From the NCBI RefSeq assembly GCF_900095885.1, contig NZ_LT615367.1:2418001-2482000 (forward strand): a stretch of 64,000 nt of DNA, read 5' to 3'. This document shows, one piece after another, positions 14,514 through 43,691 of this stretch. The notes beneath the pieces are model-generated. The model saw only the letters and a program-made list of their open reading frames with translations. It made no database searches and was not told where the DNA came from. The stretch is from Dickeya aquatica. GTDB taxonomy: Bacteria > Pseudomonadota > Gammaproteobacteria > Enterobacterales > Enterobacteriaceae. Position numbers and translations under genes: made by a program. Numbering within the stretch: the first letter of the stretch is position 1; every line of letters starts with the position of its first letter.

Positions 14514-15589
14514 GTGAGTGAGAAAACGGAAAAACCCACCCCAAAAAATTGCAGGATGCGCGCAAAAAAGGGGAAGTCGGGCAGAGTCAGGATGTGCCGA
14601 AACTGCTGATAAGCGTCGCGCTGCTGGAGATGATCATCGCGTTAAGCGAGAGCGGAATGAGTAAGTTGCAGGCCTTGATGCAACTGCCCCTGAGCCGCAT
14701 CAGTGACGCGTTCGGCCACGCCGCCGACGAAGTATTCAGCGCCGCGCTGACACTGCTGGGCACCTTCTGCCTGCTGACCATTAGCCTCGCATTGTTGATG
14801 CGTATTGTCGGCGGCTGGATCCAGTACGGCCCGCTGTTCGCCGTAGACGCGCTCCAGCTTGACGTTAACCGCTTAAACCCGGTCAACCAGATAAAACAGA
14901 TGTTCAGTATGCGTAAGCTGACCGACATGCTGACCAACCTGCTCAAGGCCGCCACCATCGGCCTGGTGTTCTGGCTGGTGGTTGTACCACAGCTGGAGTG
15001 GCTGGTAGAGCTGGCCTATGGCGACCTTAATGGATTCTGGAAAGGGGTCGAGGCGGTATTCAAAAGCGTGGCCCGCACCACGCTTGGCGCACTGCTGGCA
15101 CTGGGGTACCTCGATTTTGGCTTGCAGAAATACTACTTTCTCAAGCAACAGCGCATGAGCCATGAAGACATTCGCAACGAATACAAGAACTCGGAAGGCG
15201 ACCCACACATGAAAGGCCACCGCAAAGCGCTGGCGCAGGAAATTCTCAATGAACCGGCCAGCCCGCGCAAAGCCCGTGTGGAAGAGGCCGATTTACTGCT
15301 GGTTAACCCAACGCACTACGCCGTGGCGTTGTTCTACCGCCCCGGCAAAACCCCGCTGCCGCGTATCCTGCTTAAAGGCGAAGATTTTCAGGCAAAAGCG
15401 CTCATCGCCCGCGCCCATCAGGCTGGCGTACCGGTTATTCGCTTTATCTGGCTGACCCGTACCCTCTACCGCATGCCGGAAGGTCACTACATTCCACGCG
15501 ATACGCTGCAACCGGTCGCCCAGGTCTACCGGGTATTACGACAGCTTGACCGCAGCCTGCCTGCACAAGAGATTATCGAGCTGGAGTGA
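14514..15589 (+). pseudogene. hrcU: HrcU, T3SS switch protein (FlhB family), frameshifted as sequenced
   Basis: From the GTG at 14514 (GAGG upstream) the frame reads SEKTEKPTPKN and is then out of phase; from 14549 the correct frame continues QDARKKGEVGQ to the stop. Restoring one A in the A6 tract at 14543-14548 gives the family N terminus and a 358-residue protein of normal length. The rest is intact: four membrane helices, then the cytoplasmic domain with the autocleavage motif NPTH at 15305-15316. HrcU cleavage switches secretion from pilus to effectors. I suspect a sequencing error; a real loss would inactivate the T3SS unless slippage on the A tract restores the frame. Confidence 0.9.
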
Positions 15590-15762
15590 CCGGCCCGGCA
15601 CAGCGATATCCGCCGCTCACACCGTCTCCACAGCGTGAGCGGATGAGGGTTACGTAAAGAAAAGGCCGCCGCCGTTAAAAATCGTTTCAATATAGGCCTG
15701 CACTCGCGTTAAATATTTGCTATTACGACGGTTATTCCCTTTTTACGGATAAAAGTGCTGCC

Positions 15763-16989
15763 ATGTTCAAATCGTTTTTTCCTAACCCAAAACTGTTTTT
15801 CTCCTCCGCACTACTCTGGTCATTAATGGCGGTCATTATCTGGTACAACGCCTATAAACCGCTCGGCGAGTCGCTGTTTCACATCGACGCAGCTTTGCCA
15901 CAAGGGGCAATACGCTTTATTTCACCCGCTTTTTTGTGGTTTTACGGCTATTACGTGCTCTGCGTCGGCCTGTTCGCCGCGCTCTGGGCCTGGCTGCGGC
16001 CCCATCCGTGGCAACGCTGGTCGATTCTTGGCACGGCACTGATTATTTTTGTCACCTATTTCTCGGTGGAAGTCGGGGTGGCGGTGAACGACTGGTATGT
16101 GCCGTTTTACGATTTGATTCAAAAAGCGCTCAGCAGCCCTAACGCCGTGACCATTGAGGCGTTTTATCAGCAATTGCTGATTTTCCTCGGTATCGCGCTG
16201 ACTGCGGTCACCGTCGGGGTACTGAATATGTTTTTCGTCAGCCACTATGTGTTTCGCTGGCGCACTGCCATGAACGATTACTACACCGGGCACTGGCAGC
16301 AGTTGCGCCACATTGAGGGGGCCGCGCAGTATTCAGGAAGACACATAATGCGCTTTGCCTCCACGGTGGAGAGCCTTGGCGTAGATTTAGTGAAGTCACT
16401 GATGACGCTGATTGCCTTTTTACCAGTGCTGGTCAGCCTCTCGTCGCACGTCAAATCCCTGCCGTTGCTTGGTGAAATTCCTTACGGGCTGGTCATTGCG
16501 GCACTGGTTTGGTCGTTACTGGGAACCGGTGTGCTGGCGTTAATCGGTATCAAGCTGCCGGGACTGGGTTTTAATAATCAGCGGGTAGAAGCCGCCTATC
16601 GTAAAGAGCTGGTCTACGGCGAGGACGATGGCAGCCGGGCCAGCCCGCCAACCTTAACGTCGCTGTTTTACCCATGTGCGCAGAGACTATTTCGGCTCTA
16701 TTTTCACTACACCTATTTCAACATCGCCCGGGTGCTGTACCTGCAAACGATAATGTGTTCGGCATTATCATGCTGTTACCCTATCGTGGCAGGCAGCCTG
16801 ACACTTGGCCTGATGACGCAAATTACCAACGTGTTCGATCAGGTGCGCAGTTCTTTTCAATACCTGATTAATTCATGGACGGTTATCGTCGAAATGATGT
16901 CTATCTATAAACGCCTGCGCAGTTTTGAATCAGCGATTCAGGATATGCCGCAAACCACGAACCCCCCGCCAATATTGGATAATCCGTGA
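15763..16989 (+). CDS. sbmA: SbmA/BacA-family peptide transporter
   Basis: This 408-residue inner-membrane protein has about seven to eight helices and the SbmA motifs FRWRTAMNDYY and EGAAQYSGRHIMRFASTVE. E. coli SbmA (406 residues) is a proton-driven importer of proline-rich antimicrobial peptides and microcins; relatives help Rhizobium and Brucella survive host peptides. It lies 173 bases after hrcU in the same direction, with an 8-bp inverted repeat (15613-15620 and 15635-15642) between but no T-run, so it is probably not part of the hrp operon. Confidence 0.88.
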   Translation: MFKSFFPNPKLFFSSALLWSLMAVIIWYNAYKPLGESLFHIDAALPQGAIRFISPAFLWFYGYYVLCVGLFAALWAWLRPHPWQRWSILGTALIIFVTYFSVEVGVAVNDWYVPFYDLIQKALSSPNAVTIEAFYQQLLIFLGIALTAVTVGVLNMFFVSHYVFRWRTAMNDYYTGHWQQLRHIEGAAQYSGRHIMRFASTVESLGVDLVKSLMTLIAFLPVLVSLSSHVKSLPLLGEIPYGLVIAALVWSLLGTGVLALIGIKLPGLGFNNQRVEAAYRKELVYGEDDGSRASPPTLTSLFYPCAQRLFRLYFHYTYFNIARVLYLQTIMCSALSCCYPIVAGSLTLGLMTQITNVFDQVRSSFQYLINSWTVIVEMMSIYKRLRSFESAIQDMPQTTNPPPILDNP

Positions 16990-17501
16990 TACCGATTCTG
17001 CGTTGTCATAACGGCAACGCGGAATACCATTACCGCTCACCAAGGCTTTCGCCTGGCTGTCACCAAACAGATATTTTATCTGCCCCTTTTTAACTGATGG
17101 TGAATGAAAAATGGCGAATTAACGTCATGACGCAGCCATTATTTTCCCGGCAGACAAAAAATGAAAAAATAGGGTCTAGTAAGGCAATTTAAAAACAATT
17201 TTTTGAATAAGTATGGAGAAAAGGCTGTGCCCTTGAACCATACCACTAGTACATGAAGACGAATGATTGATTACCAAATAAAATAAAAAATACGCAAGAA
17301 AAATCTGGAAAAAACACAAATAGTTTGTTATTTCATTATGTTACCAGCCATTCACACACCTGAAAAATGTGATAACATTCACATGTTTTTCTCTGCATTG
17401 AAAAAAACCATCTCTTATTTGGCAATAACACGGATGTTAAAGATGGTTAGCCTCTGTTGACTTTGACTCGTCAACGCTCTTAGCCTTACAGGAATCACTG
17501 A
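16990..17501. other. AT-rich intergenic region upstream of the first chemoreceptor
   Basis: I see no gene in 512 bases between sbmA and the first chemoreceptor. The second half is strongly AT-rich. I could not find a convincing flagellar sigma-28 promoter. Confidence 0.5.
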
Positions 17502-43048: not shown

Positions 43049-43419
43049 GTCGCTTCTCCTGACCTGTCGTTAGCAAAGGGAACCCGCTCGTGCGCGGGTG
43101 TAGTGGCGTCATCATACCGACATTACTACCTAAAAAGTAAGCCTGATTGGTACACGAAGGGTTTCTAAAATTTATCATATGATTAACGCAACGCCTGCAT
43201 TGACGTCACAATAACGCCACATAGCGCCAGGAAATTATGCTCAGGCCCGAACATGGCATTATTTCATCGGACATTTCAGGATACCTGTATATAAATCAGT
43301 ATATAAATAACATGAATACTGTTAATGCATCGGCTGGGTTATTTCCGATACCGCTGTATTAAAAAACAGCGGCCAACTTTGCTGGCCACGTTGAGCATTA
43401 TCTGAAAGTGATTCAAATA
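43049..43419. other. Intergenic region between ycgM and ycgL
   Basis: No gene is visible in 371 bases. It holds the ycgM promoter region and, at 43361-43387, the ycgL terminator. A 7-bp stem CCGCTGT/ACAGCGG (43351-43357 and 43366-43372) overlaps that terminator's T-run. Confidence 0.5.
43361..43387 (-). terminator. Terminator of ycgL
   Basis: On the minus strand GGCCA-N7-TGGCC is followed after four bases by six T, about 35 bases past the end of ycgL. The stem is short but has the right polarity. Confidence 0.55.
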
Positions 43420-43427
43420 TTATTTTT

Positions 43428-43691
43428 TTACCGCCGAGCGTAATTCTTCCAATAAATTTTCTGGCGGCGGGGTAACTGAAGATAAAAACCCTGCTCAGCA
43501 AGTGATTGTTTTACTTTGTTAATATCTGCCGAAGCTAACGTCTTTCTGCCATCCAGTGGTAATATCATCACCAGATGCGGTTGACCGAAACTTTCCATCA
43601 AGGCGGTCGGCACGCGAGAGAAGTCGTCTTTTTTTTCGACATAAAGATACGTTTGATCGCGTTTAGAACTTCTATAGATCACACAATACAT
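43428..43691 (-). CDS. ycgL: YcgL, conserved protein, C terminus frameshifted as sequenced
   Basis: The gene starts MYCVIYRSSKRDQTYLYVEK, essentially E. coli YcgL. As sequenced it ends QLPRRQKIYWKNYARR at 43428. Adding one G to the plus-strand G4 at 43469-43472 restores QLPPPPENLLEELRSAVKK with a stop at 43420-43422, matching the family's QLPPPPEDLL region, and gives 90 residues. YcgL is a small conserved protein of gammaproteobacteria without a settled function, encoded divergently from minCDE. The repairable tail argues strongly that the base is missing from the sequence rather than the organism. Confidence 0.9.
   Translation of the reverse strand: MYCVIYRSSKRDQTYLYVEKKDDFSRVPTALMESFGQPHLVMILPLDGRKTLASADINKVKQSLAEQGFYLQLPRRQKIYWKNYARR

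What the first reader, a model, noticed from the sequence alone, without database searches (positions are those of the whole stretch)
14543..43472. Recurrent one-base losses, mostly in homopolymers, break at least seven genes
Sites: hrcU A6 (14543-14548); first chemoreceptor (17547, 17558, 17656 and more); mmgE/prpD (24618-24620, near 23601, 23394-23398); permease (about 27818); dppB-like (39397-39400); dppA-like (41072-41073, about 39889); ycgL (43469-43472). Nearly all outside the chemoreceptor are losses of a single base, most in a run of identical bases. One added base restores a family-normal protein each time. Hitting a conserved core gene (ycgL) and a T3SS gene alike argues for a shared technical cause. 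The alternative, genuine decay of the region, would make T3SS and both island transporters non-functional.
Basis: partly seen in the sequence, partly recalled or inferred. Interest (0 to 1): 0.75.

Follow-up and report, generated by a model that had tools for sequence, protein, structure and literature searches.

The report
Assembly errors that look like mutations
Six genes in this stretch of a Dickeya chromosome look broken, most likely because single bases were missed in sequencing or assembly, while one neighbouring chemoreceptor gene is a genuinely decayed copy; it matters mainly as a warning not to read gene loss into this assembly.

Summary
The breaks are present in the sequence. Outside the chemoreceptor there are nine frame changes in six genes: hrcU, mmgE/prpD (3), an amino-acid ABC permease, dppB, dppA (2) and ycgL. 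All nine shift the frame as a one-base loss would. They are best explained as consensus errors. The strongest evidence covers two genes: database proteins from other long contigs match the window's MmgE pieces at 100% and its DppA pieces at 99.7-100%, yet are uninterrupted. That is five frame changes against at most one amino-acid difference in 1,010 aligned residues. The three broken window genes tested keep low dN/dS and have no in-frame stops against G005. Isolated events unique to this genome are 9 one-base losses to 1 gain over 464 kb. The first chemoreceptor differs: in-frame stops, gains and losses, raised dN; it is a genuine pseudogene. Three caveats: the homopolymer link is weak; damage to hrcU and ycgL is confined to one end; no raw reads were available and the intact proteins' source is not shown. 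Low interest; not a real biological feature.

The parts
14514..15589 (+). hrcU, type III secretion export-apparatus gene; frame changes once within the first ~25 codons, the rest is open (TTG ORF 14549-15589, 346 codons)
   Evidence: HrcU-like proteins of G001 (93%) and G005 (86%) align from residue 7 on, the start lies in another frame; Pfam Bac_export_2 positions 13-334 of 335 in the open part. Intact copies exist in G001 and G005. Described only, not mended
17502..19477 (+). first chemoreceptor, genuine pseudogene: several frame changes, in-frame stops, insertions and deletions
   Evidence: 5 (G005) or 8 (G001) stops in piecewise alignment; dN 0.231 against 0.046 for the intact second chemoreceptor with G001, 0.242 against 0.176 with G005
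20103..22037 (+). second chemoreceptor, intact; internal control
   Evidence: full-length, no stops, dN/dS 0.103 (G001) and 0.120 (G005)
23224..24675 (-). mmgE/prpD-family gene; three frame changes (near 24619, 23603, 23386)
   Evidence: P0121 (486 aa, longest contig listed 4,264,625 bases) matches all four pieces at 100%; G005 homologue uninterrupted; dN/dS 0.157, no stops
27730..28400 (+). amino-acid ABC transporter permease; one frame change near 27813
   Evidence: G005 homologue (223 aa) matches both pieces at 95-96%; dN/dS 0.089
38508..39490 (-). dppB-like permease; one frame change near 39400
   Evidence: the 25 proteins listed at E up to 1e-140 are all 328 aa and cover 84% of the open frame; the L196 protein aligns on both sides in two frames, its first piece weakly (40%, 27 bits)
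39576..41157 (-). dppA-like substrate-binding protein; two frame changes (near 41074 and 39887)
   Evidence: P0001 (528 aa, longest contig listed 4,306,477 bases) matches three pieces at 100, 99.7 and 100%
43423..43709 (-). ycgL; one frame change near 43470, changing the C-terminal tail; the Pfam YcgL domain stays open (positions 1-72 of 73)
   Evidence: full-length in G001, G005 and other Enterobacterales; the tail lies in the other frame; dN/dS 0.070 (G005) and 0.115 (G001)

Best explanation
The six cleanly interrupted genes are intact in the organism. The interruptions are single-base consensus omissions in this assembly, scattered along the chromosome and sometimes clustered within a few kilobases. 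Shown: one sign at nine of nine junctions; near-identical uninterrupted proteins for two genes (mmgE, dppA); continued purifying selection on the three window genes tested; losses unique to this genome outside the window too. Inferred: the cause lies in sequencing chemistry, base calling or incomplete polishing, and the same holds for hrcU, the permease, dppB and ycgL, for which no near-identical second sequence was seen. The chemoreceptor at 17.5-19.5 kb is not part of this and is a true pseudogene.
For: P0121 matches MmgE at 100% in four pieces (485 of 486 residues), and P0001 matches DppA at 100, 99.747 and 100% (525 of 528 residues aligned, one mismatch): five frame changes with at most one amino-acid difference. 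Nine of nine junctions are losses modulo 3. dN/dS of mmgE 0.157, permease 0.089, ycgL 0.070-0.115, and outside the window PqiB-like 0.045 and SSADH 0.079, against 0.059-0.120 for intact genes; no stops except one in SSADH. Isolated events unique to this genome: 9 one-base losses to 1 gain with G001, 5 to 1 with G005. Conserved genes outside the window are hit: a PqiB-like gene three times and a succinate-semialdehyde dehydrogenase, and a PqiA/YebS-family gene. G001 has the opposite bias among isolated events, 6 single-base gains to 0 losses, as expected if each assembly has its own error signature. Gene-fragmenting single-base errors in long-read assemblies are documented (PMC12007338, passages seen).
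Against: No reads were available. Sources and name of P0121 and P0001 are shown as '-', so strain and assembly are unknown; the tool uses '-' for proteins the window itself encodes, but neither can be read from the window in one frame and the contig lengths differ from this chromosome. The comparison is at protein level only. Homopolymer association is modest. All clean own-unique events give weaker biases, 27 to 13 and 23 to 8. Several of the 9 isolated losses lie at gene starts or boundaries (50515, 122079, 152946, 193471), where a frame break is less certain. G005 also has more gains than losses among isolated events (4 to 1), so this genome is the shorter one in both comparisons. mmgE's dN/dS lies slightly above the intact range, and the PqiA/YebS-family gene has one stop and 0.160. 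In a distant sample only 3 of 81 genes had junctions, two of them with short first pieces. Four of the six genes have no near-identical intact copy seen here.
Confidence: 0.92

Rival explanations
1. Genuine decay: the T3SS gene, both island transporters, mmgE and ycgL have been altered by real deletions in this lineage, perhaps as it adapted to water.
For: Decay does happen here: the adjacent chemoreceptor is a true pseudogene. Multiple hits per gene (mmgE 3, dppA 2) are what an already dead gene would collect. Damage to hrcU and ycgL is confined to one end and could be tolerated.
Against: Five frame changes with at most one amino-acid difference to near-identical proteins; one sign at nine of nine junctions; low dN/dS and no stops against G005 in mmgE, permease and ycgL; conserved genes outside the window are hit as well.
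Confidence: 0.04
2. A mutator or laboratory-passaged isolate with an excess of real single-base losses.
For: One-sided short indels with few substitutions could come from a repair defect (recalled; repair genes were not examined).
Against: 5 of 9 sites have no run longer than 3 within 8 nt, whereas such defects act mainly on long runs (recalled); almost no amino-acid differences accompany the breaks in the two genes where this could be seen.
Confidence: 0.03
3. Programmed frameshifting in these genes.
For: None beyond the frame changes.
Against: Relatives are open across the sites: G001 and G005 (hrcU, ycgL), G005 and Pantoea (mmgE, permease), Paraburkholderia, Cupriavidus and Caballeronia (dppA, dppB), and the 25 listed DppB relatives.
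Confidence: 0.01

Closest known systems
Gene-fragmenting indel errors in long-read bacterial assemblies (Kastor paper, PMC12007338; passages seen)
   Same: Short errors turn intact genes into apparent frameshifted pseudogenes across a genome; in the first example set of its Table 1 deletions (1708) outnumber insertions (900)
   Different: The sequencing platform of this assembly is unknown; the link to homopolymers is weaker here; the density is lower than the 23.3% pseudogenes of that paper's example assembly
Bacterial pseudogene (chemoreceptor at 17.5-19.5 kb)
   Same: In-frame stops, insertions and deletions, raised dN next to an intact paralogue
   Different: The three broken window genes that were tested for stops and dN/dS lack these traits

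Membership tests
assembly consensus error | uninterrupted copy in an independent, near-identical sequence | tested here: met
   met for mmgE and dppA, 2 of 6 genes, source not shown; dppB search gave a best hit of 95%; hrcU, permease and ycgL not searched in that database
assembly consensus error | one sign of single-base event | tested here: met
   9 of 9 junctions in the window; isolated own-unique 9 losses to 1 gain and 5 to 1; all clean own-unique 27 to 13 and 23 to 8
assembly consensus error | occurs along the chromosome, in conserved genes too | tested here: met
   for the next 400 kb; weaker in a distant sample, 3 of 81 genes, two with a first piece of 20-23 residues
assembly consensus error | concentrated at homopolymers | tested here: inconclusive
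   4 of 9 window sites with a run of 4 or more within 8 nt against 17.8% expected; 8 other sites not clearly enriched
assembly consensus error | raw reads disagree with the consensus | not testable with these tools
   no reads held
genuine pseudogene | in-frame stops and raised dN | tested here: not met
   not met for mmgE, permease and ycgL; met for the first chemoreceptor; hrcU, dppA and dppB not tested for dN/dS
programmed frameshift | frame change conserved in relatives | tested here: not met
   relatives are open across the sites

The most novel reading that the evidence does not exclude
The losses are real and recent: an aquatic Dickeya isolate has altered a T3SS export gene, two island transporters and a conserved gene by single-base losses with almost no substitutions, pointing to an unusual mutation process.
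Probability: 0.03. Interest if true: 0.5.

Novelty: not a real feature. Interest (0 to 1): 0.12.

Why it matters
Anyone reading this assembly could conclude that the strain has lost its type III secretion system and island transporters. The evidence says that such claims from this assembly, and from its relative G001 with the opposite bias, need checking against reads. The decayed chemoreceptor beside the clean breaks shows how to tell real decay from error within one window.

Tried and rejected
Rejected: confinement to the island. The first half of the island, with T3SS, sbmA and both chemoreceptors, has open matching ORFs in G005, and breaks continue outside the window. Rejected: the unpolarised two-genome count as a measure. 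Some 'breaks in own' are breaks in G001 (the T3SS ATPase gene at 9238-10620, for example: open here and in G005, split in G001), so I relied on the three-way count. That count drops events without alignment to the arbiter genome, with unclean flanks, or labelled complex. The two-way survey gave 12 of 301 genes with junctions in the own sequence (12 losses, 3 gains) and 19 of 294 in G001 (5 losses, 15 gains). Some junctions in these surveys are start-region artefacts of mechanically called ORFs. Led nowhere: the first distant control, because the fetched G001 stretch was not the homologous one; replaced by a smaller one (own 3 of 81 genes, 3 losses; G001 5 of 80 genes, 5 gains and 1 loss). Four paper searches (20 of 741, 14 of 14, 15 of 51 and 6 of 12 papers listed) showed no title describing this assembly.

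Full report
Setting. The window is bases 2418001-2482000 of a single-contig chromosome of 4,501,560 bases. It carries a T3SS cluster (export-apparatus and ATPase families confirmed for three ORFs), an SbmA-family gene and two chemoreceptors (the second by Pfam; the first by similarity to it). Then come a catabolic and transport island and, from ycgN onward, genes shared with relatives. In G001 the stretch 22.2-41.8 kb is missing from the corresponding place. In G005, G008, G004 and G006 the fetched pieces at this place match only from 41.8 kb on. The closest held relative is G001 (86% in aligned ORFs). G005, of the same genus, carries T3SS, sbmA, two chemoreceptors and the first half of the island elsewhere in its chromosome, in open ORFs. 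Species is inferred only: Dickeya, probably D. aquatica.

The observation. hrcU changes within its first ~25 codons; mmgE/prpD near 24619, 23603 and 23386; the permease near 27813; dppB near 39400; dppA near 41074 and 39887; ycgL near 43470. All 9 of 9 shifts have, modulo 3, the sign of a one-base loss. With G005 as reference no stop lies inside the pieces of mmgE, permease or ycgL; one more distant reference, L182, gave one stop in a mmgE piece that runs past a junction. The dppB call is the weakest: its first piece aligns at 40% and 27 bits. Two breaks are mild: the open ycgL frame still covers the Pfam YcgL domain (positions 1-72 of 73), and the open hrcU frame covers positions 13-334 of 335.

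The key test. Two proteins from other, very long contigs are practically the same as the window's. P0121 (MmgE, 486 aa, longest contig listed 4,264,625 bases) matches four pieces at 100% (485 of 486 residues). P0001 (DppA, 528 aa, longest contig 4,306,477 bases) matches three pieces at 100, 99.747 and 100% (525 of 528 residues). Both are uninterrupted. Five frame changes against at most one amino-acid difference in 1,010 aligned residues is not a pattern that decay would be expected to leave. Their sources are shown as '-', so they may be another strain or another assembly of the same one. The tool uses '-' for proteins the window encodes, but these cannot be read from the window in one frame and the contig lengths differ from this chromosome. 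For DppB, the 25 listed relatives are 328 aa long, but the best is 95% identical, so that is not a same-species test.

Selection. With G005 as reference, piecewise dN/dS is 0.157 (mmgE), 0.089 (permease) and 0.070 (ycgL; 0.115 with G001), against 0.059-0.120 for seven intact genes of the window; mmgE lies slightly above that range. Outside the window, with G001 as reference: PqiB-like 0.045 without stops, SSADH 0.079 with one stop, PqiA/YebS-family 0.160 with one stop (only one piece used). dppA, dppB and hrcU were not tested.

The exception. The first chemoreceptor (17.5-19.5 kb) has 5 (G005) or 8 (G001) in-frame stops in its used pieces and several frame changes. Gains as well as losses are unique to this genome there. 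Its dN is 0.231 against 0.046 for the intact second chemoreceptor with G001, and 0.242 against 0.176 with G005. This is true decay and shows what decay looks like in the same neighbourhood.

Is it local? With G005 as reference, 3 of 47 genes in the window and 5 of 187 in the following 400 kb have small frame junctions (Fisher P 0.20). Two of the five are also seen in G001 and so probably belong to G005. The window count misses hrcU (piece too short) and dppA and dppB (no G005 homologue in the stretch), so the window may be denser than this shows. Polarised with both relatives in 227,374 coding bases, isolated events unique to this genome are 9 one-base losses, 1 one-base gain, 1 two-base loss and 1 two-base gain with G001 compared. 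With G005 compared they are 5, 1 and 1 two-base loss. Several of the nine lie at gene starts or boundaries. All clean own-unique one-base events are 27 losses to 13 gains and 23 to 8, which include the decayed chemoreceptor and pairs that restore the frame; outside the window they are 21 to 9 and 19 to 6. Among isolated events G001 has 6 single-base gains and no single-base loss, and G005 has 4 gains and 1 loss. So this genome is the shorter one in both comparisons, and G001's bias is opposite. Breaks cluster, for example at least five in the adjacent PqiA/YebS-family and PqiB-like genes. In a distant sample the own sequence had 3 of 81 genes with junctions, two of them resting on first pieces of only 20-23 residues.

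Homopolymers. The longest run within 8 nt is 4 or more at 4 of 9 window sites, against 17.8% of random coding positions (P 0.009 for the mean). At 8 other sites the excess is not clear (P 0.20).

Conclusion. The six clean breaks are most likely assembly errors, shown most directly for mmgE and dppA and inferred for the other four; the seventh gene is a real pseudogene. The type of error is known: long-read assemblies carry short indels that pseudogenise genes (PMC12007338, passages seen). The platform behind this assembly was not found (capped listings). Nothing found here supports loss of the T3SS or of the island transporters.

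Noticed in passing
G001, regions fetched: The relative's assembly has the opposite signature: extra bases dominate its frame junctions (15 of 20, and 5 of 6), the T3SS ATPase gene among them.
   Followed up: partly
G000 about 2,569,000-2,573,600 (L033): Adjacent PqiA/YebS-family and PqiB-like genes carry at least five one-base losses relative to G001, with G005 as arbiter.
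   Followed up: partly
L034:4059-5573: A 504-codon ORF is continuous here but lies in two frames in both G001 and G005; possibly an error that fuses two genes.
   Followed up: no
window 16666-16781: The end of the SbmA-family gene shows four small indels unique to this genome against G001 and G005 whose sum is a multiple of three.
   Followed up: no
window 38508-41157: dppA and dppB have close relatives in Dickeya ananatis, Dickeya dianthicola and Musicola paradisiaca (95-99% over the main pieces) and more distant ones on Burkholderiales plasmids.
   Followed up: partly
window 59783-59966 (+) and 61443-61867 (-): Manganese riboswitch and cspA thermoregulator matches above Rfam gathering scores.
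   Followed up: no
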